64,000 nucleotides of DNA. Origin: Candidatus Schekmanbacteria bacterium. GTDB lineage: Bacteria; CSSED10-310; JACPHN01. The stretch spans positions 1 through 64,000 of the forward strand of contig JACPHN010000082.1 in NCBI GenBank assembly GCA_016188575.1, written 5' to 3'. Under the pieces are notes generated by a model. It ran no database searches. It was not told the origin of the DNA and saw nothing but the letters and a program-made list of their open reading frames with translations. The position numbers were made by a program, and so were the translations under genes. Positions within the stretch are counted from its first letter, which is position 1, and every line of letters begins with the position of its first letter. Of this stretch, positions 42,300 through 55,252 are shown piece after piece.

Positions 42300-43313
42300 A
42301 TGAAAACGGTATTCGACAATCGATATCAGCTTGCGGAGCTCCCCTATTTCCGACTCCTGGACGGCGAGCGACTGGTGCTCTCTTCACCGGAGCTCGCGCC
42401 CATAGTCGACATGCACACGCATTTCGCACTGACGTTCGTGCTCCCGAATCTCGTGGATCTCGAGGCGCCGACACCATACGTGCAACACTACCTCCCGGCA
42501 CACCGGCGGCTCGATCTCGACGTCTACCTCAACAAGAATTTTTCACGCCGGGATCTCGTGCGGTTGAAGCGCGACCTCACCTTGTGTTCCTTCACACCCT
42601 GGGGGATGCGCCGCTCCCACACGGCGGCGAATCTGTCCACGGAAATGGCAGACCTGGGGATTTCCCATTCCGCCGTCCTTCCAATTGACTTTCCTTTTTT
42701 CCTTTCGCACAATGCCCGCACGTTTCTGCGTGTGGCATCGCGGCGAAGGGAATTCATCGGCTTCGGCTCCGTGCATCCCCGCATGCGCAATATCGCCAGG
42801 AAGCTCGATCAGCAGATCGGTCAAGGGGCCCGCGGCATCAAGGTGCATCCCGCGGCTCAGATGGTCGCCCCCGAAGATCCGTGCGCGCTCGAGCTCTATC
42901 ACCTCTGCGGCCAGCGAAAGCTGCCGGTCCTCTGGCACTGCGGTCCCGTCGGTATCGAGACGCGGCGCGGGCGCGAGCTCACCCAGGTCGCCCGCTACCG
43001 TCTCCCCATCGAGCAGTGCCGCGAGACCACCTTCATCCTCGGCCACGCGGGCGCCCTGCAGTGGGAGCAGGCACTGGACCTCGCCGTGGCGCGCGAGAAT
43101 GTGTACCTGGAGCTGTCATCGCAGTCGCTTACCGCCCTACGCGAGATTTTCCGGCGCGCGGATCCGCAGCGGCTGCTTTTCGGCACCGATTGGCCGTTCT
43201 ACCACCAGGCGATCCAGCTCGCGAAAGTTTTTCTGGCGACCGAAGGGAACGCGACGCTGCGACGTCTGGCGCTGTACGGGAACGCCGCGCGGCTTTTCGG
43301 CCTGCCGGCGTAG
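42300..43313 (+). CDS. Amidohydrolase (TIM-barrel, amidohydrolase_2 type)
   Basis: 337 aa from ATG 42300; the longer frame upstream has no better signal. Metal and active-site elements: DMHTHF near residue 38, GIKVHP (bridging or catalytic Lys), VLWHCGP, ILGHAG and the C-terminal FGTDWPF Asp. It probably hydrolyses or decarboxylates a cyclic or aromatic acid; the substrate is not readable. Its last 45 codons (43177-43313) lie in the left copy of the 234-bp direct repeat; a second copy of this coding end sits at 55019-55155, beyond the CRISPR-like island. Confidence 0.8.
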   Translation: MKTVFDNRYQLAELPYFRLLDGERLVLSSPELAPIVDMHTHFALTFVLPNLVDLEAPTPYVQHYLPAHRRLDLDVYLNKNFSRRDLVRLKRDLTLCSFTPWGMRRSHTAANLSTEMADLGISHSAVLPIDFPFFLSHNARTFLRVASRRREFIGFGSVHPRMRNIARKLDQQIGQGARGIKVHPAAQMVAPEDPCALELYHLCGQRKLPVLWHCGPVGIETRRGRELTQVARYRLPIEQCRETTFILGHAGALQWEQALDLAVARENVYLELSSQSLTALREIFRRADPQRLLFGTDWPFYHQAIQLAKVFLATEGNATLRRLALYGNAARLFGLPA

Positions 43314-43410
43314 CTGTCAGCCGTTGCCACCGCTTACGCGCTCGCCGGCGCGCGGCTCTCTTTCCGGGCGCTGTCCGCTGTTGGGATTTCGCCGTGGTAG
43401 TATCGACCGA
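43177..43410. repeat. Left copy of 234-bp direct repeat
   Basis: It contains the last codons of the amidohydrolase gene, its stop at 43311-43313, and a copy of the terminal codons of the neighbouring saccharopine dehydrogenase on the minus strand (43334-43410). It is about 93% identical to 55019-55252, with no indels. Confidence 0.9.
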
Positions 43411-43412
43411 AG

Positions 43413-43768
43413 GCGCCCAAGGCTGGCTCCGCGGTCCCCGAGCCCTCCGAACCACCCGGCCCCGGACCCGGCCCTGATCCTGGACCGCGGCCTCCGGGCT
43501 ACGGGCCCGAGCCACCGACGCCGCCGGGCCCACTGCCGCCCACGGGCCCCACGATGCGGACCGTGCGCGCCTTTGGAAACGTTCCTCCGGAGATCTGGAA
43601 CCGACTCGGCACAAAGCTCCTGCCGAGCTCCGCAGCGGTGGCGCCGAGCTCAAGGCGGGCGTGGACTTCTCGGCGACGGTCCGCTCCGACCTTGCCGCGG
43701 GCCTCACGACGGAGGTGTGCCAGATCCTCGACGAGCTCGGCCTTGCGGACAAGGTGAAGGTGGAGTAA
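43413..43768 (+). pseudogene. Truncated, frameshifted C-terminus of a large AAA/DUF499-like protein (tentative)
   Basis: The frame is open from 43413, immediately after the repeat boundary. It encodes a Pro/Gly-rich linker (GPGPGPDPGPRPPG) followed by TVRAFGNVPPEIWNRLGTKLLP. At 43623-43627 one base appears to be missing: the next frame continues ELRSGGAELKAGVDFSATV and ends QILDELGLADKVKVE-stop at 43768. A single inserted A would restore ...LLPKLRSGG.... The block resembles the C-terminal region of large ATPases found in defence islands (DUF499/Swt1-like), from memory only. It is a dead remnant cut by the left junction. Confidence 0.5.
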
Positions 43769-43833: not shown

Positions 43834-45045
43834 ATGACGGAAGGCCCGTTGTTGATCCTGTTGGTGGGCTCAAACCCGCTACCGAGCTACCTCTCGGCTT
43901 GCGCCCAGCGGCCGAGTCGTGTCGCGCTCGTGTACACCGAGGAGACGAAGGACGCGAAGGACCGACTGCGGCGTGAGCTGGCGCGCGCTCTCGGCGAGGG
44001 GGTGACCTTCGACGAGCCGTTCGTGAGCGACGCCACCTGTGCCACGACGGTTCGACGCGTTCTCGATTCTCTCGTGCCGAGCGATGGGGATCGGGACGTG
44101 CTCTTGAGCTACACGGGCGGCACCAAGGTCATGGCAGCCCATGCCCGGTTGGCCTTCTCAAGCAGGGGACGGCCAGAACACGCCTCCTATCTCGACGAGG
44201 GCGACATCAAGCGTGAGGCGCGGCTACGCTTCGACGACGGGAACTCGAAGCCTCTCTCTGACTACTCCGAGCCTCCGCCGCTGACGCTCGCAACTGTGCT
44301 CGCGCTTCACGGCATCACGCACAAGCCGCGGGAGGCCAGGACTCCGGCTCCCACGACCGGCGATGCGCGCGAGATCTTGTGCAAGGTGCTGGCGGATCTC
44401 CCCCTGGCGGCCGCTCTCTATCGCGAGCGCGAACGGCTTCAGGAGATCAGCAACCCGAACAAGGCGACCTCCGAGCCGTTCCGGGCGGACCGCTACGGCT
44501 TGCGGCTGAGCTTGCCGGAGCTCCCGACGAGCGAGCAGCTCAGCCAGTTCCAGAACGCCGACGAGAAGAAGTCGTGGTTCAGGCAGTGGTACGCCTCTAT
44601 CGGTGGCGAGTGGCTGGAGGAGTGGCTGGGCGCGCAGATTCGCGCGCTGGATCTGGCGCCGGCGCCTGAGATCACGGTTGGCGTGAACGCCAGGTGGGAG
44701 AGGGCCAAGAAGGAAGATCCCCCGATGGAGATCGATCTCGCGGTGATCCGTGGCCACCGGTCGTACTTCATTTCGTGCACGACGGACGCATCCAAGGACC
44801 TGTGCAAGTCCAAGCTGTTCGAGATTGCAGTCCGGTCGCGCCAGCTCGGGGGCGATTTGGCGCGCGCTGCCCTTGTCTGCCTCGCGGATGATCGAACTGC
44901 GTCAGCACTTCAACGGGATGTCGATGACGTGTGGGGTGCCAGCAACACAACCAAGGTCTTCGGCATCTCGGACGTCCGCGCGTGGTCCGACTGCGAGGGC
45001 AAGCAACCGAACCGGCACCCGCTGAAGGCCTGGCTGGAGAGCTGA
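43834..45045 (+). CDS. CARF-domain effector with PD-(D/E)xK-like nuclease domain (Card1/DUF1887-like)
   Basis: 403 aa. ATG 43834 has GGAGG 9 nt upstream. The N-terminal 150 aa are a Rossmann-like CARF domain with the ligand loop SYTGGTKVMAAHA. The C-terminal domain has GGEWLEEWLGAQI, then MEIDLAVIRGHRSYFISCTT, and KSKLFEIAVRSRQLGGD. This matches the layout of Card1/Can2 nucleases, which are switched on by cyclic oligoadenylate. The usual ECK catalytic pair appears here as SCT, so activity may be altered. It is the first gene of the module; the Cas10 gene starts 1 bp after its stop. Confidence 0.75.
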   Translation: MTEGPLLILLVGSNPLPSYLSACAQRPSRVALVYTEETKDAKDRLRRELARALGEGVTFDEPFVSDATCATTVRRVLDSLVPSDGDRDVLLSYTGGTKVMAAHARLAFSSRGRPEHASYLDEGDIKREARLRFDDGNSKPLSDYSEPPPLTLATVLALHGITHKPREARTPAPTTGDAREILCKVLADLPLAAALYRERERLQEISNPNKATSEPFRADRYGLRLSLPELPTSEQLSQFQNADEKKSWFRQWYASIGGEWLEEWLGAQIRALDLAPAPEITVGVNARWERAKKEDPPMEIDLAVIRGHRSYFISCTTDASKDLCKSKLFEIAVRSRQLGGDLARAALVCLADDRTASALQRDVDDVWGASNTTKVFGISDVRAWSDCEGKQPNRHPLKAWLES

Positions 45046-45046
45046 G

Positions 45047-46759
45047 ATGCCCGTGGTCACCGGAATCGACGTCCTCGGCATTCAAGGCTACGTCTTCGCG
45101 TCGAACCGCCTTCGGGATGTGCTCGCGGCCTCGTGGATGGTGGACCACGTCGTGAAGCGCGACGCCAACTCGCTCCTCCAGTGGGGGATGACAGACGACC
45201 GCGTCCTGCTTGCCGCCGGCGGGAACGCCATCGTCGAGCTCGGGAACCTCGACGATGCAAGAACGTGGACCCGCCGGTACACGCGCTGGTTGCAGGACGA
45301 GGCGCCGGGGCTCGAGGTCGCTGTCGTCCACCGCGCCTACGATGGCCGCTCGCTGGCGTGGGGGCTCAAGGCGCTCGCGGTCGATCTCGCCAGAGCGAAG
45401 CTCGAGCGGCGGCCGAGCGCCCCGCAGCTCGGGCTCAGCGTCACGGCCGCCTGCTCGGTGACGGGGCTACCAGCGACCGCCCTCGACCGCGGCGAGCTCG
45501 TGTCTCGTCGGATTGCTCGTCTGCGCGAGCAGACGGAACAGGCGAGAGAGCGCTGGCAGCAGTTCCTGCCCGGGCCTCTGGATCACGCTCCGGGCTGGAC
45601 CGCCGACTTCCCTGACGAGCTCGACCTCATGGGCCGCACGCGCGGTGAGACGAGCCTTCTCGGCGTCGTCCACGTCGACGGCAACGGTGTCGGCGGAGCA
45701 ATCAAGGCCTGGCTCGATCGCTGCCTCGCGGAAGAGGTCGGCGACGAGAGAGTCCGTACCGAGTACCGCGAGTGGTCGCGCGCCATCGACGAGCTGGGCG
45801 AGCGCGTCCTGCACGCCACGATCCAGCGGGTCGCCTCCTGCATCATCGAGGAGGAGAACGAGCACGGGGAGAAGAGGTGCGTCGTCCGCGGTACTCCGTA
45901 CGGGCTTGGCTTCCGGCTGCGAGAGGACGCGACGAGCCACGCCTCCCGCAGGGTCCTGCTGCCGCTGCGTCCGATCCTACTTGGCGGAGACGACCTCACC
46001 TTCGTGTGCGACGGCCGGATCGCGCTTGACCTCGCAGCCGCTGCCCTGCGGGAATTCGAGGCGAACCAGATCCCGCACCTCGGCCAAGGCGGCGGCGAGA
46101 GGACGCTCACCGCCTGCGCCGGTGCCGCGCTCGTGAAGGCGCACGCACCGTTCCACCGGAGCTACGCCCTCGCGGAAAGCCTCTGCGCGTCCGGCAAACG
46201 CGCACGGCAAGACGTGAACCGGCAGAGGCAAGCCGATACCGGCTGCTGGCTCGACTGGCATGCCGGCTTCACGCGGCCTGCCGAGGCCGTCGAGAACCTC
46301 CGCAGGCGCGAGTACCAGGACGGGAACCTCACAATGCGCCCGTATCCGCTCGTCCCGTTCGACGGGCGTGAGCAGTCCTGGGCCTGGCTCGACCGAGAGC
46401 TCCTAGGCCCTGATCACAGCAACGACGGCTCGTTCCGGGGATACCGGGAGGCGCGGGACGACGCCGGGAAAACGCACTTCGTCCCCAACGTCTGGTCCGG
46501 CAGCCGCAGCCGTGTGAAGAGGCTCGGCTCGCTGGTGCCCGATGGCTCTGACGCCATCCAGCGCCAAGTCGAGGCATGGAATGCGATTGAGGACGGCGTC
46601 AAACTGCCGGTACGCCTCGCTGCTGGAGGCTTCATCGGACAGCGGACCCCACTTCTCGACGCGGTCGAGCTGCTGGACTTTCACGTTCGCCTGGAGCCCG
46701 ATCCGAGTGCAGCGGACCGTGCCGCCAACGCGCCCGCGGCAGAGGAGGCAGCCCGATGA
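45047..46759 (+). CDS. cas10: Cas10-like large subunit lacking HD domain (type III-D-like)
   Basis: 570 aa. It starts with VTGIDVLGIQGYVFASNRLR, the N-terminal palm signature of Cmr2/Cas10, with no preceding HD nuclease domain. The first palm acidic motif is D211 in VHVDGNGVG. The second palm has GGDDLTF at 313-316, the metal site for cyclic oligoadenylate synthesis. The Cys pairs of the usual zinc finger between palms are not evident. The enzyme should make cOA when the effector complex binds target RNA, activating the adjacent CARF protein. Target DNA cleavage by Cas10 is not expected without HD. Confidence 0.88.
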   Translation: MPVVTGIDVLGIQGYVFASNRLRDVLAASWMVDHVVKRDANSLLQWGMTDDRVLLAAGGNAIVELGNLDDARTWTRRYTRWLQDEAPGLEVAVVHRAYDGRSLAWGLKALAVDLARAKLERRPSAPQLGLSVTAACSVTGLPATALDRGELVSRRIARLREQTEQARERWQQFLPGPLDHAPGWTADFPDELDLMGRTRGETSLLGVVHVDGNGVGGAIKAWLDRCLAEEVGDERVRTEYREWSRAIDELGERVLHATIQRVASCIIEEENEHGEKRCVVRGTPYGLGFRLREDATSHASRRVLLPLRPILLGGDDLTFVCDGRIALDLAAAALREFEANQIPHLGQGGGERTLTACAGAALVKAHAPFHRSYALAESLCASGKRARQDVNRQRQADTGCWLDWHAGFTRPAEAVENLRRREYQDGNLTMRPYPLVPFDGREQSWAWLDRELLGPDHSNDGSFRGYREARDDAGKTHFVPNVWSGSRSRVKRLGSLVPDGSDAIQRQVEAWNAIEDGVKLPVRLAAGGFIGQRTPLLDAVELLDFHVRLEPDPSAADRAANAPAAEEAAR

Positions 46760-47403
46760 CAAGCGGCCGGCCGCCTTCCCTCCTGCAGATAGAGCTGCTC
46801 TCCGATGCCACCTTCAGCCGGGGCGAGGGGACCGCCGGGGTGGTTGATACGGAGGTGGAGCGGGACAAGTTCGGGATGCCGTTCATCGGCGGCAAGACCG
46901 TACGCGGCCTGCTGCGGGACTCGTGGCTCTCGATGTCCCGCCACTTCCCAAGCCTAGAGCAGGCGGCCGAGCGTGTCCTGGGGCGGAGCCAGGCGCTGGA
47001 TGAGTCGTGTCGGCTCAGGATCAGTGATGCAGTCCTGCCGGCGGCGATTCGGGCCACGGTCCGCGGAGCGGCCGAGCGAGGGGAGCATAAGCTGCTGCCG
47101 GGGATAATTCTCGACGGCTTTACCAGCATCCGTTACCAGACGGCCGAGGACCGCGAGACCGGCGCGCCTGGCGTGACGACGCTGCGGTCCTCACGTGTCG
47201 TGCTCCGCGGTTTCGTGTTCGAAGCGAGTCTCTCGTGGCTGGACGGCTACAGGCCCACGGCGGCCGATGCGCGGCTCCTGGCGCTTTGCGCGCTTGCAAC
47301 CCGTCACGGCGGGCTGTTCCGCAACCGGGGACGCGGCCACATCCGCATGACGCTCGATGGCGACATCGAAGCAACGCGGAAGTACGGGGAGGCGACGGCA
47401 TGA
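46756..47403 (+). CDS. Small RAMP (Cas7-like) protein
   Basis: 215 aa, start overlapping cas10 stop (ATGA). RAMP features: an N-terminal strand with LLSDATFSRGEG, the loop FIGGKTVRGLLRDSW (equivalent of PGSSLKGALR in Cas7), and a C-terminal glycine-rich loop FRNRGRGHIRMTL. Cas7-type subunits form the backbone that holds the guide RNA and may cut target RNA through a loop Asp; a candidate is D32 in VVDTEVE. It is shorter than most Csm3/Cmr4 proteins. Confidence 0.7.
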   Translation: MTSGRPPSLLQIELLSDATFSRGEGTAGVVDTEVERDKFGMPFIGGKTVRGLLRDSWLSMSRHFPSLEQAAERVLGRSQALDESCRLRISDAVLPAAIRATVRGAAERGEHKLLPGIILDGFTSIRYQTAEDRETGAPGVTTLRSSRVVLRGFVFEASLSWLDGYRPTAADARLLALCALATRHGGLFRNRGRGHIRMTLDGDIEATRKYGEATA

Positions 47404-49127
47404 GCACCACGGCCGCCCCGATCTACCTCCACTACAAGCTCCGGCTTCGGTCGCCGGCCATCGTCTCGACCCTGTCCGGCGATCCCAACAGCGCGGCCAC
47501 CCAGCCCTTCATTCCCGGCAGTGCTCTTCGCGGCGTCCTGGCCGCCCGCCTCATCGCAACCGGCGTGGCCGGGGACGCCGACGAATTCCGGCGCCTCATC
47601 CTCTCCGGCGACGTCCGCTATCTGCATGCGTACCCCGAGCTGGCTGGAGAACGGTCACTGCCGAGCTCGTCGTCTTGGAGGAGCGAGAAGGCGGATCCGA
47701 GCCGTGCGATCGACCTCGCCGCGTTCAGCGGTGACATCGACGCGTCGGTCGATGCCGATGACTTCGAGAGAGTTTGGCCCAATGAAGCGCTGGTCGCGGT
47801 ACCCGAGCCGTTCGCCGCCGCGTCGGCTTCTGCCGGCGGCCGCAGCATCGCGGCGCCGTCGATCGGCTCTCGGCTCCATCAGCAACGAGATCGCGTCAAG
47901 GGTCGGCCGTGGAAGGATCCCGCGGAGCAGCCGCACGGCGCGCTCTTCGTCTACGAGTACCTCGAGCCTGACCAGGTCTTCCGGGGGATCGTCCAGATCA
48001 TGCCCGCAGCGGCCGCGGACATGGAACGTATCAAGACGGTGCTTGGTGCCGAGCCCATCCTGGTCGGGCGTTCCCGTCGTGCCGGCTACGGAGGCGAGGC
48101 CGAGGTCGAGCTCACCGGGCAGACGCAACGGGAGTACCAGAGCGTGTCCGGATCGATCTCCCGGGACGTTGCCGCGGGGACAGTGTTCAATGGGTTCCTG
48201 GCCTCCGCATACATCGGCCGCCACCCCACGACCGGACAGATCGATCCCAGCGCGCTGCGACAGGAGCTTCTCCGTCGGCTGGGCGCAGCGGCGACGGTGG
48301 AGCGCACCCGGTGGACCTTCGAGGCCGTGGGCGGATTCAACCAGAAGTGGCGCCTGGAGGTCCCCCAGGCGCAGGCGGTCGCGGCCGGGGCCGTGCTAGT
48401 TCTGAAGGCCACCGCCGCCATCCCGGCAGCCAGCCTGCGAGCGATCGAGCACGAGGGGATCGGGGAGCGCCGGGTCGAAGGATTCGGTCGGCTCCTGTTC
48501 CTGGAGCACTCCGACGACCAGGGGACCATCCGGCTATATCGCGGAGACGACCAGGTGCAGGCGGATGGCGGTAGCTCCCGTGGGCTTACAACCCTTTCCG
48601 AGCAGGATCGTCGCCAGCTCGATCTCCTGGAGCGGCGGATCGTTCTCGCAGCGGCGCGGGCTGAGATCGACCGGGTCGCCGCCATCGATCTGGCCGCTCG
48701 GACCCAGAACCGCCCGACCAACAGTCTGCTCGGACGGCTTCGGACCCTGTTCCGGCGGGCGACGGACGAGCCGGCGGCGCAAGCGGCATTGGCGAACCTC
48801 CGAACCTGGTGTAGCGACGGCGACAACCCGCAGGCTCTCAAGCCGAACGCGCGCGAAAAGCTGGACCGCTGCCGCGTCAGCGACGGGCGTCTACGCCAGT
48901 GGCTTCGCCGGCTCGCCGAATCGGCGCACGGCGAGGCAGGTTGGGATGCGCTTGTCCAGGCCGCCGGCAATCAGGCGACGCTGACGGGGCTCGCCGCGAA
49001 GAGCCACCTCACAGCGCGGGCTGCGGCAGAAGCCGTCCTGCACGAGCACTCGGCGCTCTTGCGCGTCCACCTCATCGATTCGGTCCTCGGCGCCATGGCC
49101 CGCCTGAACCGCAGGGGAGCGAGATGA
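47400..49127 (+). CDS. csx10: Csx10-like RAMP (Cas5-type) with helical C-terminal extension
   Basis: 575 aa, start overlapping the previous stop (ATGA). The N-terminal RAMP opens YLHYKLRLRSPAIVSTL with FIPGSALRGVLAARLI, like Csx10 of type III-D systems, and a glycine-rich SRRAGYGGEAEV loop near residue 225. A second ferredoxin-like part runs to about 400 (IGERRVEGFGRLLF). The last 170 aa are almost entirely helical (QDRRQLDLLERRIVLAAARA, then LLGRLRTLFRR). Csx10 should bind the 5' handle of the guide RNA and cap the complex. The helical tail might replace a Cas11 small subunit, since none is encoded separately. Confidence 0.7.
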   Translation: MSTTAAPIYLHYKLRLRSPAIVSTLSGDPNSAATQPFIPGSALRGVLAARLIATGVAGDADEFRRLILSGDVRYLHAYPELAGERSLPSSSSWRSEKADPSRAIDLAAFSGDIDASVDADDFERVWPNEALVAVPEPFAAASASAGGRSIAAPSIGSRLHQQRDRVKGRPWKDPAEQPHGALFVYEYLEPDQVFRGIVQIMPAAAADMERIKTVLGAEPILVGRSRRAGYGGEAEVELTGQTQREYQSVSGSISRDVAAGTVFNGFLASAYIGRHPTTGQIDPSALRQELLRRLGAAATVERTRWTFEAVGGFNQKWRLEVPQAQAVAAGAVLVLKATAAIPAASLRAIEHEGIGERRVEGFGRLLFLEHSDDQGTIRLYRGDDQVQADGGSSRGLTTLSEQDRRQLDLLERRIVLAAARAEIDRVAAIDLAARTQNRPTNSLLGRLRTLFRRATDEPAAQAALANLRTWCSDGDNPQALKPNAREKLDRCRVSDGRLRQWLRRLAESAHGEAGWDALVQAAGNQATLTGLAAKSHLTARAAAEAVLHEHSALLRVHLIDSVLGAMARLNRRGAR

Positions 49128-50653
49128 ACCAGCACCCGCTCAACGACGCGATGTCGCCCCGGCCTCTGGCCGCACGCTGGGTCATCCGCGGCACGCTCAC
49201 GCTGGAGACGGCGCTTCACCTTGGTGGGGAGGCCGGCGAGCAGGTGGACATGCCCGTGCTGCGCGACGCGCGGGACGGCAGGCCTCTGCTGCCGGGAACG
49301 ACACTCGCCGGGGCTCTCCGCAGCGCACTCGCCGATCGGTTGGCCGGATATGAAGAACCCGAGCCTCCGGAGGTTGCCGCCCTCTTCGGAGGTGCCGCCC
49401 AAGGCGACGATGACGGCTCGCAGAGCCCCCTCATCGTCTTCGATGCCCTCGGCGAGATCCCGCCCGGCCACGGCGTGGAGATCCGCGATGGCGTGGCGAT
49501 CTCAGCGCTGACCGGCACCGCCGAGGACCACAAGAAGTACGACTACGAGGTGCTCCCGGCCGGGACGACGTTCGCGGTGCGGGCCGATCTGCTGCTCCCT
49601 GCACCGGCAAGCAGGGACGGGGCGACACCACCCGACGAGAAGTCGCTGCTGGAGGCACTGGCCGCCGCGCTGGACGCGTTCGCCCACGGCCAGAGCGCCT
49701 TTGGTGCGAAGCGCTCACGCGGGCTCGGTCGAGTCAGCGCGGTCTGGGCCGCCAGGCGTTTCGATCTCGGCTCCGCCAAGGGATGGGTCGAGTGGACCCT
49801 CTCGGACCACGAACGGCCCTTCGCTGCGAATCCTGACCAGTCCTGCATCCGCGACGCACTCGAGCAGGCCGCACCCGAGGCCCTCCGGCCGCTCGAGCTT
49901 CCCGGAGATCGCAGAGACAGAGTCGTGATCGACGTGGACCTGAGGGTCGCCCATGACATCCTCGTCCGAAGTCCCGGCACGGACCCCGCTGCTCCCGACG
50001 TCTCGCACTTGCACAGCGGCGGCACCGCGATACTCCCGGGGACCAGCCTCGCAGGAGTGATGCGCACGCAAGCGCTGCGCATTGCCACGCTTGTTCGCGC
50101 CGGCCGGGACGAGGCCGAACTTTGGGTCGATCGCCTCTTCGGACCGCGCTTCGAGGGCCAGCGCCCCTCGGGGAAGCTGAAGCCGCGCGCCGCACGTATT
50201 CGCGTCGATGAAGCTCGGTTCGAAGGAAGCCAGCCGCAGCGACAGACCCGCGTTGCGATCGACCGCTTCACTCAAGGGGTCGTCGATACCGCGCTGTTCG
50301 ACGAGCAGATGGAAGTCGGCGGCAGGGCGACCGCGCGCCTGGAGCTGCGGAACCCCGAGAAGGGCGAGCTGGGCCTCGTGCTCCTCGTGCTGAAAGATCT
50401 CTTGGACGGGTCTCTGCCGGTCGGCGGCACGTCCAGCGTCGGCCGCGGCGTGCTTCGCGGCATGGCCTCGGTCACCTGGCACGAGGGCGACAGGACGGCC
50501 CCGCGCTCCGCCAAGATCCAGCCGGGGAGGCAACCCGCCGGCGAGGCGGCCGGCGAGATCGACGAGGCGATCCGCGCCTTTCACCAAGCCGACTCCCTCG
50601 CCTCGACACCGTCAGAGGCAGGGGCGGCCATGAGCGCGGAGGGTGCGTCATGA
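49124..50653 (+). CDS. Fused Cas7-Cas7 (double RAMP) backbone protein
   Basis: 509 aa, coupled to Csx10 by ATGA. Two Csm3-like RAMP units are joined. Unit 1 (about 18-240): ALHLGGEAGEQVDMPVLRD, LLPGTTLAGALRSAL, and AFGAKRSRGLGRV. Unit 2 (about 280-470): LRVAHDILVRSPGTD, ILPGTSLAGVMRTQA, and VGGTSSVGRGVLRG. Each unit has the thumb loop and a glycine-rich loop. Loop Asp residues (D42 and the DxxxRS region) could catalyse target RNA cleavage every 6 nt. Such fusions are known in type III-D/E-related systems and reduce the number of separate backbone subunits. Confidence 0.8.
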   Translation: MNQHPLNDAMSPRPLAARWVIRGTLTLETALHLGGEAGEQVDMPVLRDARDGRPLLPGTTLAGALRSALADRLAGYEEPEPPEVAALFGGAAQGDDDGSQSPLIVFDALGEIPPGHGVEIRDGVAISALTGTAEDHKKYDYEVLPAGTTFAVRADLLLPAPASRDGATPPDEKSLLEALAAALDAFAHGQSAFGAKRSRGLGRVSAVWAARRFDLGSAKGWVEWTLSDHERPFAANPDQSCIRDALEQAAPEALRPLELPGDRRDRVVIDVDLRVAHDILVRSPGTDPAAPDVSHLHSGGTAILPGTSLAGVMRTQALRIATLVRAGRDEAELWVDRLFGPRFEGQRPSGKLKPRAARIRVDEARFEGSQPQRQTRVAIDRFTQGVVDTALFDEQMEVGGRATARLELRNPEKGELGLVLLVLKDLLDGSLPVGGTSSVGRGVLRGMASVTWHEGDRTAPRSAKIQPGRQPAGEAAGEIDEAIRAFHQADSLASTPSEAGAAMSAEGAS

Positions 50654-51288
50654 CCGCGACCGAAACGTCTCCCCTCCTCGCCGGTTGCGAGCTGTCGACG
50701 CTGGACTCCGCCGTGTGCCAGAGATGGCTCGCCTGGTTGCTCGGCGATAGCAACGTCGCACCGGAAGGGGCACCCGGGCTGCACTGGGCGCTCGCCCACT
50801 GCGACGACGGCGTAACGTGGGGGCGCTACGATGCAGACGCAAAAGTATGGCGTCTCGGGAACCAGGTCGCACCCGAGGTCTCGCCACCGATCCACCGAGA
50901 GTCGCTGCTAGAGCTACGGCTCTTCGGTGAGACGAGCGAGGTTCTGATCTGGCGGACGGACGCCGGCCTTGTAGGTCGGGTCATTCGGGAGGGCGACCCG
51001 GCCCCAGGTCCGGGCGACATCTCGAACCCGCTCCGCCCGTCGGACGACTCGCGCATCCTCCGCGGCGGCCACGTTGTCGCGCAGCGTGATCACGACTTCA
51101 CGCGTGTCGGAGACCAAACCGGAGCGGAGCAGGTCCTTCCTCTCGCCGTCACCGCCGAGCAGCTTCGGACAGGTCAGGTCCGCCTCGCAGCGCGTCACTA
51201 CTACGAGGCGGACGCGGAGACCGGCGCGGTTCGTATCACCGCGACGCGCCTCGTCACGCTGACGTCGGGAGGTACCCATGGCGCTTGA
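50650..51288 (+). CDS. csx19: Csx19-like protein of type III-D systems
   Basis: 212 aa, coupled by ATGA. Residues about 85-115 (LLELRLFGETSEVLIWRTDA) and the C-terminal part with QVRLAARHYYEADAETGAV, then RITATRLVTL, follow the pattern I recall for Csx19. Csx19 is an accessory subunit almost exclusive to III-D. Its role is unproven; it may contact the guide or fill the position of a small subunit. Its stop overlaps the next start by 11 bp. Assignment is by pattern memory and position. Confidence 0.65.
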   Translation: MTATETSPLLAGCELSTLDSAVCQRWLAWLLGDSNVAPEGAPGLHWALAHCDDGVTWGRYDADAKVWRLGNQVAPEVSPPIHRESLLELRLFGETSEVLIWRTDAGLVGRVIREGDPAPGPGDISNPLRPSDDSRILRGGHVVAQRDHDFTRVGDQTGAEQVLPLAVTAEQLRTGQVRLAARHYYEADAETGAVRITATRLVTLTSGGTHGA

Positions 51289-53143
51289 GCGTGGCGAGCT
51301 CGTCGTCAGGGAGACCGGGAAGGGCAAATCTCCTCGCATCCACATTCGGATCGGCGCGGCGATGTTCAACCCGGCTCGCGGCGAGATCTCGCAGACAGTG
51401 CTCGATCGTCTCGCCGAGCTCGCGGGCAAGGAGGTCGAGCTCGAGCGCGTCGGGGGCCAGCCGAAGAGGATCCGCGAGGTCGGCGGATCCTTCGTACCGC
51501 CGCAGCGCGAGATCAGCGAGGGTGGTCAGGACAGACCTCAGTCCGGTCGTGGCGGCGGCTCCCAGCCGCGCCGCCCCCAAGAGCCCCAGGAGCGGAGGGA
51601 GCGCGACATGCCTCGACGGCAACCCGACTTCCACAACCCTTACAACTTCGTGCCTGCCCCTCCTCGGAACACGAGCGATGCCGACCTGGGCGATCAGCGC
51701 CCTGTCGACCACGATGCCTTCCTCATGGACCGCTACTCGGGATCGATCCGTGTGCACATGACGGCGAAGACGCCTCTGCTGGTGCCCGACACCGAGCGCG
51801 CTCAGGAGAGAGCGAACGGGCACAAGACCTTTCCGCTCCGCGTGGATGCGGACGGGAAGCCGCTCATCCCAGCCTCCAGCGTTCGCGGCATGCTCCGCTC
51901 GGCCTACGAGGCCGTCACCAACTCCCGCTTTGGGCGCTTCTCCGAGTCGCACAAGCAGAGGCTGAAGTATCGCCAGAGCCAGAGGCCGTTCAGTAAGGTC
52001 GACTACCCAGCGTCAGCCTGGGACCTGCTCCACGATTCACTCCGGCCCGCTGCTGCCATCGATCAGCTCTCTCCGGCCGACCGGGTCTTCGGCTGGGTCA
52101 AGGTCGATGCGGACACGGGATCGCGCTCGAGGGGCGAGCGCGTGGCGGCCCGAGGGCTCCTGCGCGTGGGGCCTGTGCGCTGCGAGTCGAGCACGGCTGA
52201 TGCGGTGGAGAGGTTCGCGGCTCCGGGTCTTCCGCTCGCCATCCTGTCGGCACCCAAGCCCCAGCAGGGTCGCTTCTATGTCGCTCGATCGCCGAATGGC
52301 GAGGCGCAGAGTGAAGATCTTTCCAAGCAGGACGCGGGCTACACGTTGGGCATGGGACTCCGCGGCCGAAAGGTGTATCCACATCAGACGAGCCTGCCCG
52401 ACGGGCACTGGGACGATCCGACCGCGGACCGGACGCAGCAGCCGCATGGTACGCCCGCCCATCACCAGGAGTACCGGCGGCCCCTCAAGAACGGCCAGGA
52501 GCAGCGCGACGACCAGAACCGATCGATCCTCGGCTGGGTCAAGCGCGGCGCGAAGTTCGGCTTCGACCTCCAAGTGCAGAACCTCTCGACGGTCGAGCTT
52601 GGCGCGCTCCTCTGGCTCCTCGGACTGCAGGAGGGCTGCTTCTTCCGCTTTGGTGGCGGCAAGCCGCTCGGCTTCGGAAGCGTGCGGCTCGAGGTCGTGT
52701 CTCTCGAGGTGCGAACCGGAACCGACCTTCGCGCGCGCTACGATGCGTGGCACGACGCGACACCGCCGAACGACCCACGCACGGATGCGCTGAACGCGTT
52801 CAGGGACGCCGTGGTGCGCGCCTATCCTCCGGCCGCCGGCGGCTTCGAGGGCGTAGCGTTCATCCGCACCTTCCTGACCGCCTGCCGCGGGCACGGGGAC
52901 AACCTCCCGATCCATTATCCCCGGGCCACGGCGGACGGACAGCCGGACCCCCCGAGCCCGGACGGCGAGTCCTTCAAGTGGTTCGTAGCGAACGAGCGGG
53001 ACGGTGCGCGGCACGCGCTACGAGACCTCGCGAGCGATACGGGACTGCCCACGCTGCCGGAACGGATAGGAGGAGGCGGTGGAGGTCGTCCGCGCCAAGG
53101 CGGCGGTCCCCATCGCAACCGTGGCGGAGGGGGAAGGCGTTGA
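51278..53143 (+). CDS. TIGR03986-like CRISPR RAMP with RGG-like tail
   Basis: 621 aa. An N-terminal domain (about 1-70, GKSPRIHIRIGAAMF) and a Gln/Arg/Gly linker precede the RAMP core, which opens with FHNPYNFVPAPP. The core has VHMTAKTPLLVPD, LIPASSVRGMLRSAYEAVTN, and GGGKPLGFGSVRLE, the standard RAMP strand, thumb and G-rich loop. The C-terminus is a 25-aa Gly/Arg tail (GGGGGGRPRQGGGPHRNRG) likely to bind RNA non-specifically. It completes the effector operon; the size and motifs match the TIGR03986 family of III-D loci. Confidence 0.78.
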   Translation: MALERGELVVRETGKGKSPRIHIRIGAAMFNPARGEISQTVLDRLAELAGKEVELERVGGQPKRIREVGGSFVPPQREISEGGQDRPQSGRGGGSQPRRPQEPQERRERDMPRRQPDFHNPYNFVPAPPRNTSDADLGDQRPVDHDAFLMDRYSGSIRVHMTAKTPLLVPDTERAQERANGHKTFPLRVDADGKPLIPASSVRGMLRSAYEAVTNSRFGRFSESHKQRLKYRQSQRPFSKVDYPASAWDLLHDSLRPAAAIDQLSPADRVFGWVKVDADTGSRSRGERVAARGLLRVGPVRCESSTADAVERFAAPGLPLAILSAPKPQQGRFYVARSPNGEAQSEDLSKQDAGYTLGMGLRGRKVYPHQTSLPDGHWDDPTADRTQQPHGTPAHHQEYRRPLKNGQEQRDDQNRSILGWVKRGAKFGFDLQVQNLSTVELGALLWLLGLQEGCFFRFGGGKPLGFGSVRLEVVSLEVRTGTDLRARYDAWHDATPPNDPRTDALNAFRDAVVRAYPPAAGGFEGVAFIRTFLTACRGHGDNLPIHYPRATADGQPDPPSPDGESFKWFVANERDGARHALRDLASDTGLPTLPERIGGGGGGRPRQGGGPHRNRGGGGRR

Positions 53144-53207: not shown

Positions 53208-54449
53208 ATGAACCTCGCCGTGCTCGAACAGCTCATCGCTGGAGGCGAGTCGGAGACGCTCGAGCTCAAGAGGTCGACGGCGGATCTGCGCCGAGCCGGG
53301 GAGTCGCTGTGCGCGTTTCTCAACGGCGAGGGCGGTCAGGTCGTTATCGTCGTGGCGCCGGACGGGAAGATCAACGGCCAGCAGGTCATGGACAGCACGC
53401 TCCGCGACGTCGCGGCCATGCTCGGGCGCTTCGAACCGCCCGCGCGGGTTGAGATGGACCGCGTCGACGTCCGGGAGGGGCGCGCGGTGATCGTGCTCGA
53501 CGCTCCCTCGGCGAGGGAGCACGCCCCGTTCACCTTCGACGGGAAGGCGTATCGTCGCGTGGGCTCGACGACTACCGTGATGGCACAGGAGGAGTATGGG
53601 CGGCCCCTGCTCGATCGGAACCACAGCCGCCATCGCTGGGAGAACCAGCTCGCGGTGGGTCTCGGTCTCGACGACCTGGACCACGAGGAGATCCTGCGCA
53701 CCCGCCAGACCGCCATCGACCAGCGGCGCCTCTCGGCCGGCACGAGCATGGACGTCGGCGACATCCTCGACCGCCTCGGGCTACGCGTCGGCGGGAAGGT
53801 CACGCAAGCCGCACAGATGCTCTACGGCACCAGGTTCTTGCCCGACTATCCGCAGGGGCTGCTCAAGCTCGGTCGTTTCCGCGGCACGAAGATCACTGGC
53901 GACATCCTGGACAACAAGCAGGAGCACATGCACGCCTTCGCGATGGTCCGCGAGGCGATCGCATGGCTCGACCGGACCTTGCCGCTGGCGGCCCACTTCC
54001 CCAAGGGCAGCATTTTTCGCGAGGATCGGCAGCCGGTGCCCCCCGAGGCGCTGCGCGAGGTGATCCTCAACGCGGTCATGCACCGCGACTGCAGCCGAGC
54101 CAGCTCCTACGTGGCGATCGCTGTCTTCGACGATCGCATCGAGGTCCGCAGCGTCGGGGACTTCCCCACCGGAATCCGCGCCGAGATGCTCTCGGGCGAC
54201 CACCCATCGATCCTTCGCAACCCGCTGATCGCGGGAGCGTTCCACCGGACCGGCGCCGTCGAGGTCTGGGGCCGGGGCACCAATCGCGTCATCGAAGCCT
54301 GCCGCGCCCGCGGCGTTGCTCTGCCCGAGTTCTCCGAGCTCGGGGGTGTCGTCACGGTGACTTTCAAGGCCGCCGTGGGGCCCAAGGCAGCGAAGGGACC
54401 AAGCTGGGACCAAGCTGGGCCTAAGCCGGGCTCAAGCGCAAGTGCTTGA
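53208..54449 (+). CDS. AlbA_2 (Schlafen-like) / GHKL-ATPase-like protein, C-terminus frameshifted
   Basis: 413 aa. ATG 53208 follows AAAGG. The N-terminus is an AlbA_2 domain (ESETLELKRSTADLRRAGES, FLNGEGGQVVIVV). The C-terminal part has the HATPase_c_4-like block PEALREVILNAVMHRDCSRA and GAVEVWGRGTNRVIEAC. The reading frame ends in an 11-bp tandem repeat, and the winged-helix domain normally fused at the C-terminus is encoded just downstream in another frame. The domain set suggests a nucleic-acid-binding regulator or defence accessory. It lies 64 bp after the RAMP operon on the same strand. Confidence 0.75.
   Translation: MNLAVLEQLIAGGESETLELKRSTADLRRAGESLCAFLNGEGGQVVIVVAPDGKINGQQVMDSTLRDVAAMLGRFEPPARVEMDRVDVREGRAVIVLDAPSAREHAPFTFDGKAYRRVGSTTTVMAQEEYGRPLLDRNHSRHRWENQLAVGLGLDDLDHEEILRTRQTAIDQRRLSAGTSMDVGDILDRLGLRVGGKVTQAAQMLYGTRFLPDYPQGLLKLGRFRGTKITGDILDNKQEHMHAFAMVREAIAWLDRTLPLAAHFPKGSIFREDRQPVPPEALREVILNAVMHRDCSRASSYVAIAVFDDRIEVRSVGDFPTGIRAEMLSGDHPSILRNPLIAGAFHRTGAVEVWGRGTNRVIEACRARGVALPEFSELGGVVTVTFKAAVGPKAAKGPSWDQAGPKPGSSASA
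54395..54438 (+). repeat. Four 11-bp tandem repeats at a frameshift point
   Basis: GGGACCAAGCT is perfect at 54395-54405 and 54406-54416, and degenerate at 54417-54427 and 54428-54438. Because 11 is not a multiple of 3, gain or loss of one unit changes the frame; three units encode the peptide GTKLGPSWDQA. One extra unit would join the AlbA_2 gene in frame to the winged-helix tail. Confidence 0.75.
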
Positions 54450-54657
54450 GCTTGCAGCGACTCCTCGCTCTCTCCAAGAGCTCATGGAGCCCTCAGGCAG
54501 GACGAACAGGACCAAGTTCCGGGACCAAGTTCTGGCGCCATTACTGGAAGCGGGCCTTCTCGAGATGACGATCCCCGACAAACCTCGGAGCCCGCGACAG
54601 CAGTATCGGACGACGCCGGAAGGAGCGCGCCGCAGCGGACAGCGCGACCATCAGTGA
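54442..54657 (+). pseudogene. Detached winged-helix tail of the AlbA_2 gene
   Basis: 71 codons from a GTG at 54442. They encode LQELMEPSGRTNRTKFRDQV, then LAPLLEAGLLEMTIPDKPRS, and QYRTTPEG, the winged-helix domain typical of the C-terminus of AlbA_2/ATPase regulators. In-frame sequence extends back into the 11-bp repeat (GTKLGLSRAQAQVLE). GTG 54442 overlaps the upstream stop by 8 bp, so re-initiation could still produce it as a separate peptide. A slippage frameshift explains the split best. Confidence 0.65.
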
Positions 54658-55018
54658 GCTGGCGATTCCGGACGGACGACGGACGGCAGCAGGGCCTCCT
54701 GAAGTCGTCGTCGACGTAAACCAAGGGCCTCTTGCCCCAGCCGCAGAGGCAGCCGCCGTTGACCGAGGGGCCGTGCTCTCTCCCCCCTCTCCGCGTCGGA
54801 GAGCACGATCGGCCCCGAGAAGAGGCGCGGGCGGTACGCGGCGTGATCTCTGCCACCGCCGCGCCGAGAGCCGCCGCCGACCGGCTCTTGGCTGGTGCCT
54901 CGCAGAATGGAGAGGTAGTTTCGGAGCATAAGGGTAGACGTAGACCAGCTTCACCGGAGCGGCGCCCGATTTGGCGCCCCACTTGCCCTGTCCCACGGTT
55001 TCGCCCAGCAGAAGCCAG
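54658..55018. other. Island right end without a supported gene
   Basis: Several overlapping minus-strand frames exist, all Arg/Ser/Gly-rich and mutually inconsistent, and none has a clear family signature. The stretch is probably decayed sequence between the AlbA_2 gene and the right direct repeat. Confidence 0.4.
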
Positions 55019-55252
55019 TTTTCGGCACCGATTGGCCGTTCTACCACCAGGCGATCCAGCTCGCGAAAGTTCTGCTGGCGACGGAAGGGAACGCGACGCT
55101 GCGACGTCTGGCGCTGTACGGAAACGCCGCCCGGTTTTTCAGCCTGCCGGCGTAGCTGTCAGCCGTCGCCCCCGCCTACGCGTTGGCCGTCGCGCGGCTC
55201 TCTTTCCGAGCGCTGTCCGCTGTTGGGACTTCACCGTGGTAGTATCGACCGA
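55019..55252. repeat. Right copy of 234-bp direct repeat
   Basis: It carries the terminal 45 codons of an amidohydrolase (FGTDWPFYHQAI... to stop at 55153-55155) without the rest of that gene, then the genuine 3' end of the saccharopine dehydrogenase on the minus strand. The coding frame of the orphan amidohydrolase end is still intact. Confidence 0.9.

What the first reader, a model, noticed from the sequence alone, without database searches (positions are those of the whole stretch)
43834..53143. Stand-alone type III-D-like CRISPR interference module with HD-less Cas10 and no adaptation genes or array
Seven genes are coupled by 4-11 bp overlaps or gaps of 1 bp: CARF-nuclease, Cas10 (GGDD kept, HD absent), small RAMP, Csx10-like, Cas7-Cas7 fusion, Csx19-like, TIGR03986-like RAMP. 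No cas1, cas2, cas6 or repeat array is present in 64 kb. The complex should lack Cas10 DNase activity and rely on cyclic-oligoadenylate signalling; guides must come in trans. This set, inside a removable island, could be a mobile RNA-sensing defence module with an unusual guide source.
Basis: partly seen in the sequence, partly recalled or inferred. Interest (0 to 1): 0.85.

Follow-up and report, generated by a model that had tools for sequence, protein, structure and literature searches.

The report
Ordinary type III-D CRISPR effector operon
This is a complete but ordinary type III-D CRISPR effector operon, an RNA-guided phage-sensing complex with its signalling nuclease; it carries no CRISPR array of its own, but the same genome holds several arrays and a Cas6 that could supply its guides.

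Summary
Seven tightly coupled genes at 43834-53143 encode a CARF-nuclease, Cas10 (GGDD, no HD), Cas7, Cas5-Cas11, a double Cas7, Csx19 and the TIGR03986 Cas7. No array, cas1 or cas6 was found on the whole 117-kb contig. The interpretation goes too far. HD-less Cas10 is the rule in type III-D (3% have HD; PMC11229360). The gene order matches the solved Synechocystis III-Dv complex, except that Cas7 and Cas5-Cas11 are separate (215+575 aa against one 791-aa fusion). The same seven genes in the same order lie on Anabaena plasmid pANACY.01 and in Acidobacteria and Myxococcota MAGs. The three catalytic Cas7 aspartates are kept. The guide source is unproven but not mysterious: the genome has at least four repeat families in arrays (next to type I-G, I-B, I-C and PrimPol/Cas1 genes), a Cas6, four intact cas1 genes and two more Cas10 loci. 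In the closest relative the module sits beside a decayed I-G-type array and an I-G operon. Module proteins are 63-87% identical to those of the two MAGs, RpoB only 56-59%, so the module moves horizontally. New member of a known kind; low novelty.

The parts
43834..45045 (+). CARF plus PD-(D/E)xK-type nuclease of the Can2/Card1 (DUF1887, CARF4) family; predicted signal-activated effector
   Evidence: PADLOC 7e-60 and 3e-52; Pfam Card1_endonuc 21.4 bits, below cut-off 26.4; best solved relative 8q3y, DUF1887 family protein, 2e-24
45047..46759 (+). Cas10 of type III-D, GGDD at residue 313, no HD domain
   Evidence: Cas10d profile 6e-99 over almost full length; 8s9t_C Synechocystis III-Dv Cas10 2e-23; protein starts directly at the first palm domain
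46756..47403 (+). Cas7 subunit, counterpart of the Cas7 third of Cas7-Cas5-Cas11; catalytic Asp31
   Evidence: Cas7_IIId 2e-54; profile match to columns 44-244 of the Cas7-5-11 alignment, probability 98.2
47400..49127 (+). Csx10-type Cas5 fused to a C-terminal Cas11-like domain
   Evidence: Cas5_IIId 6e-88; profile match to columns 288-825 of Cas7-5-11, probability 99.7; the Cas11 part alone is weak (probability 38.9, E 3e-4)
49124..50653 (+). Cas7-2x, two fused Cas7 domains; catalytic Asp42 and Asp292
   Evidence: Cas7_IIId 2e-106; 8s9t_D Cas7-2x 3e-23; Asp positions by alignment
50650..51288 (+). Csx19, core subunit of III-D complexes
   Evidence: TIGR03984 86.8 bits against cut-off 35
51278..53143 (+). 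TIGR03986 Cas7 with insertion (Cas7-insertion)
   Evidence: TIGR03986 271 bits against cut-off 161; 8s9t_E 4e-119
43166..43410 (+). left copy of the direct repeat flanking the module (3' end of the amidohydrolase gene)
   Evidence: 224/245 identical to 55008-55252
55008..55252 (+). right copy of the flanking direct repeat; still encodes the amidohydrolase C-terminus in frame

Best explanation
It is a type III-D CRISPR effector operon of the III-D1/III-Dv lineage. Cas10, Cas7, Cas5-Cas11, Cas7-2x, Csx19 and Cas7-insertion should assemble round one crRNA, bind complementary foreign transcripts, cut them at three Cas7 sites and, while the target is bound, switch on the Cas10 GGDD cyclase. The product should activate the CARF-nuclease encoded first in the operon. 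Guides and spacer acquisition come from other loci of the same genome, most likely the type I-G arrays or the two arrays whose repeats end in ATTGAAAC/ATTGAGAC, processed by the Cas6 or type I machinery there. Composition, gene order, HD absence and catalytic residues are shown by sequence; assembly, signalling, nuclease activity and guide use are inferred from the Synechocystis complex.
For: All seven proteins match III-D or CARF-effector profiles; five of the six complex subunits match the solved III-Dv complex 8s9t by sequence or profile and Csx19 its own profile. Catalytic Asps D26, D33, D246 of PMC11026444 align with D31, D42, D292. The same seven genes in the same order occur in L026, L027, Anabaena plasmid pANACY.01 and the more distant genomes G530, G546 and G601. 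Own genome: I-G arrays at C228 and C184 (14 repeats), arrays at ends of C158 and C174, I-C-like repeats at C200, Cas6 at C264, four intact cas1 genes. In L026 the module is followed by four decayed repeats spaced 72-74 nt and a type I-G operon; in L027 it neighbours type I-E genes and an I-E-like array.
Against: No crRNA binding or signalling is shown. The genome is a draft of 275 contigs and was not scanned exhaustively for arrays, so an array specific to this operon could be missing or unseen. Several arrays compete as guide source and nothing here picks one. The CARF-nuclease has S-C-T-T where Can2/Card1-type enzymes have E-x-K, so its nuclease activity is not certain.
Confidence: 0.9

Rival explanations
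1. A stand-alone module with a non-CRISPR or otherwise unusual guide source, which has dropped dependence on arrays and Cas6 altogether.
For: No array, cas6 or cas1 found on the 117-kb contig; a distant relative (G546) also shows none in 35 kb; the array beside the L026 copy is decayed.
Against: The host genome has several arrays, a Cas6 and cas1 genes; relatives lie beside cas6 and arrays in Anabaena and Synechocystis or next to type I systems. Array sharing by type III is an established pattern (PMC5576922, PMC12814883).
Confidence: 0.05
2. A decaying, non-functional remnant operon left in a defence island.
For: It lies between copies of a duplicated gene end, beside a truncated-looking reading frame (43411-43768) and a possibly frameshifted SLFN gene; the CARF-nuclease lacks the usual E-x-K residues.
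Against: All seven frames are intact and start-stop coupled; GGDD and the three catalytic Asps are kept; module proteins are strongly conserved against relatives.
Confidence: 0.05

Closest known systems
Type III-Dv complex of Synechocystis sp. PCC 6803 plasmid pSYSA (PDB 8S9T; PMC11026444)
   Same: Same subunits in the same order: Cas10, Cas7, Cas5-Cas11, Cas7-2x, Csx19, Cas7-insertion; GGDD kept, no working HD; same catalytic aspartates
   Different: Cas7 and Cas5-Cas11 are two genes here (215 + 575 aa) and one 791-aa fusion there; pSYSA carries cas6, cas1, cas2 and arrays nearby; the window operon has its CARF-nuclease as first gene
Seven-gene III-D operon on Anabaena cylindrica plasmid pANACY.01 (NC_019772.1)
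   Same: Identical gene order, including the separate Cas7 and Cas5-Cas11 genes and a leading DUF1887 CARF gene
   Different: 25-40% identity; has a cas6 and a 40-repeat array upstream and type I cas genes downstream
Module in Acidobacteria MAG JALUUK010000068.1 (L026) and Myxococcota MAG JAJVIH010000021.1 (L027)
   Same: All seven genes, 63-87% identical
   Different: Lies next to a type I-G operon with four decayed repeats (L026) or next to type I-E genes and array (L027)
Can2/Card1 CARF-nucleases (8q3y, 7bdv, 8z4i)
   Same: CARF domain and PD-(D/E)xK-type domain
   Different: E-x-K replaced by S-C-T-T; the closest solved relative 8q3y has S-L-T-T there

Membership tests
CRISPR type III | Cas10 with palm domain and GGDD motif | tested here: met
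   Cas10d 6e-99; GGDD at residue 313
CRISPR type III-D | Csx10-type Cas5 | tested here: met
   PADLOC Cas5_IIId 6e-88; TIGR02674 99.1 bits, below its cut-off of 177.3
CRISPR type III-D | Csx19 often present | tested here: met
   TIGR03984 86.8 bits over cut-off 35
CRISPR type III-D | Cas10 usually without HD domain | tested here: met
   No HD dipeptide; alignment starts at first palm domain; norm stated in PMC11229360 and PMC11026444
CRISPR type III-Dv | Cas7-Cas5-Cas11 as one fused protein | tested here: not met
   Two overlapping genes, 46756-47403 and 47400-49127, cover the two parts of the fusion
CRISPR type III-Dv | Cas7-2x and insertion-bearing Cas7 | tested here: met
   8s9t_D 3e-23 and 8s9t_E 4e-119
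CRISPR type III-D2 / III-E | Single protein with three or more fused Cas7 domains | tested here: not met
   Largest fusion has two Cas7 domains
Can2/Card1 effectors | CARF plus PD-(D/E)xK domain | tested here: met
   PADLOC CARF_PDDEXK 3e-52; 8q3y 2e-24
Can2/Card1 effectors | E-x-K catalytic residues | tested here: inconclusive
   S-C-T-T at that place in the window and both relatives; 8q3y has S-L-T-T
Functional CRISPR system | crRNA-bound complex and target-triggered signalling | not testable with these tools
   needs protein and RNA work

The most novel reading that the evidence does not exclude
A lineage of III-D effector modules that spreads between phyla without its own arrays and regularly takes guides from host type I-G arrays, giving RNA-triggered back-up to a DNA-targeting system.
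Probability: 0.25. Interest if true: 0.4.

Novelty: new member of a known kind. Interest (0 to 1): 0.2.

Why it matters
It shows a III-D operon with the gene order of the fused III-Dv complex but Cas7 still separate, present in several phyla and transferred between them. Its value is mostly as a clean case for testing guide sharing between type I-G arrays and a type III-D complex; sharing of this sort is already documented for III-B.

Tried and rejected
Structure prediction of Cas5-Cas11 and of the CARF-nuclease gave useless models (mean pLDDT 30.6 and 41.7, three-sequence alignments), so no fold search was run. A viral-contig scan with Cas7 and a phage search with Cas7-2x found nothing, so phage carriage is unsupported. 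The I-G repeat pattern has no match in the window at 3 mismatches. 195 genomes of the Myxococcota relative's phylum gave only that relative. The Can2 paper PMC10783487 is not held. A non-CRISPR identity for the operon was rejected on the profile scores.

Full report
What is there. By curated profiles they are a CARF-PDDEXK nuclease, Cas10d, a III-D Cas7, a Csx10-type Cas5, a double III-D Cas7, Csx19 and the TIGR03986 RAMP protein. Csx19 and TIGR03986 pass NCBI's cut-offs; the Csx10 and Csx7 models score below theirs but are the best NCBIfam matches, and the PADLOC III-D models cover the proteins almost end to end.

Comparison with the solved complex. The closest solved relatives of the complex subunits are the chains of the Synechocystis III-Dv complex: Cas10 8s9t_C 2e-23, Cas7-2x 8s9t_D 3e-23, Cas7-insertion 8s9t_E 4e-119; the small Cas7 matches Cas7-Cas5-Cas11 weakly by single sequence (0.016). 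By profile, Cas7 matches the first third and the 575-aa protein the remaining two thirds of that fusion (probabilities 98.2 and 99.7); 215 + 575 aa equals the 791-aa fusion to within one residue. The Cas11 part taken alone is only a weak match (38.9). So the operon is III-Dv in order and content with one fusion missing.

Catalytic residues. The aspartates shown to cut RNA in III-Dv, D26, D33 and D246 (PMC11026444), align with D31 of Cas7 and D42 and D292 of Cas7-2x and are kept in both close relatives. Cas10 has GGDD at 313 and no HD. HD is found in 3% of III-D Cas10s (PMC11229360), so its absence is expected, as is reliance on signalling. The CARF-nuclease keeps E-x-D (MEIDLAV) but has SCTTD where E-x-K would be; its nearest solved relative, 8q3y, has SLTT. 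Whether this form is active could not be settled.

Guide source. Nothing on the 117-kb contig is an array. The rest of the genome is well supplied: I-G cas genes with a 36-nt repeat on C228, and the same repeat at the start of C184, 14 copies in all; an array at the end of C174 on the same contig as a I-B Cas8b gene (repeat ending GGATTGAAAC); one at the end of C158 beside PrimPol and Cas1 (ending GGATTGAGAC); I-C-like repeats on C200 with Cas3c; a Cas6 on C264 next to an RtcR-like CARF regulator; and two further Cas10 operons on C156 and C43. Arrays break at contig ends, so repeat numbers are lower bounds. The I-G repeat ends ATTGAAGC in one orientation, matching the G-type tail described in myxobacteria (PMC11237760). 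Type III complexes loaded from type I arrays are known, including Pyrococcus furiosus, where I-A, I-G and III-B complexes share crRNAs from all seven arrays (cited in PMC12814883).

Relatives. A genome-contig scan found two close copies: L026 (Acidobacteria MAG, 74-83% identical) and L027 (Myxococcota MAG, 63-87%). After L026's module come four degenerate repeats spaced 72, 74 and 73 nt with a similar palindrome and the TTGAAG tail of I-G repeats (21-23 of 36 positions identical to the window genome's I-G repeat), then Cas3g, Cas8g, Cas7g and Cas5-6g. L027 lies beside Cas8e and Cas5e, with an array about 7 kb upstream of the module on the same contig. More distant operons of the same order occur on Anabaena plasmid pANACY.01, with cas6 and a 40-repeat array, and in genomes of the L026 phylum: G530 (array 2 kb away), G546 (none seen in 35 kb) and G601 (near cas1 and an array). 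Having or lacking an array nearby therefore varies within this lineage.

Mobility. RpoB of the window genome is 59.4% and 56.0% identical to that of the two MAGs, below every module protein in the same comparisons (63-87%), which supports horizontal transfer. Caveats: the two relatives are MAGs, whose contigs can be misbinned, and the window genome's own phylum was not named by the tools; that it differs from both is inferred from the small number of same-phylum genomes offered. A 245-bp direct repeat at 91% (43166-43410 and 55008-55252) brackets the module; the right copy still reads in frame as the amidohydrolase C-terminus to the stop. This fits an insertion at the gene's 3' end, but no integrase was seen between the copies and no empty site was sought.

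Verdict. The finding is real and correctly typed, but each feature called unusual is normal for type III-D. New member of a known kind.

Noticed in passing
43166-43410 and 55008-55252: Direct repeat of 245 bp, 224 identical, made of the 3' end of an Amidohydro_2 gene and about 100 bp beyond; it brackets the III-D operon and the SLFN gene like an 11.8-kb insertion.
   Followed up: partly
53208-54449: SLFN_AlbA_2 plus HATPase_c_4 gene directly after the operon; a winged-helix-like tail continues in another frame (about 54400-54655), so it may be frameshifted.
   Followed up: partly
43411-43768: Short reading frames, apparently a remnant of the 3' end of a larger gene; by eye like the C-terminus of DUF499-type ATPases, but no Pfam hit.
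   Followed up: partly
L026:10056-10314: Four degenerate CRISPR repeats between a III-D module and a type I-G operon in an Acidobacteria MAG.
   Followed up: yes
L014:9721-12236 (G000:C264): Cas6 gene overlapping an RtcR-type CARF-AAA-HTH regulator gene; no array found on the fetched parts of that contig.
   Followed up: no
L008:15052-18202 (G000:C158): PrimPol and Cas1 pair beside an array.
   Followed up: no
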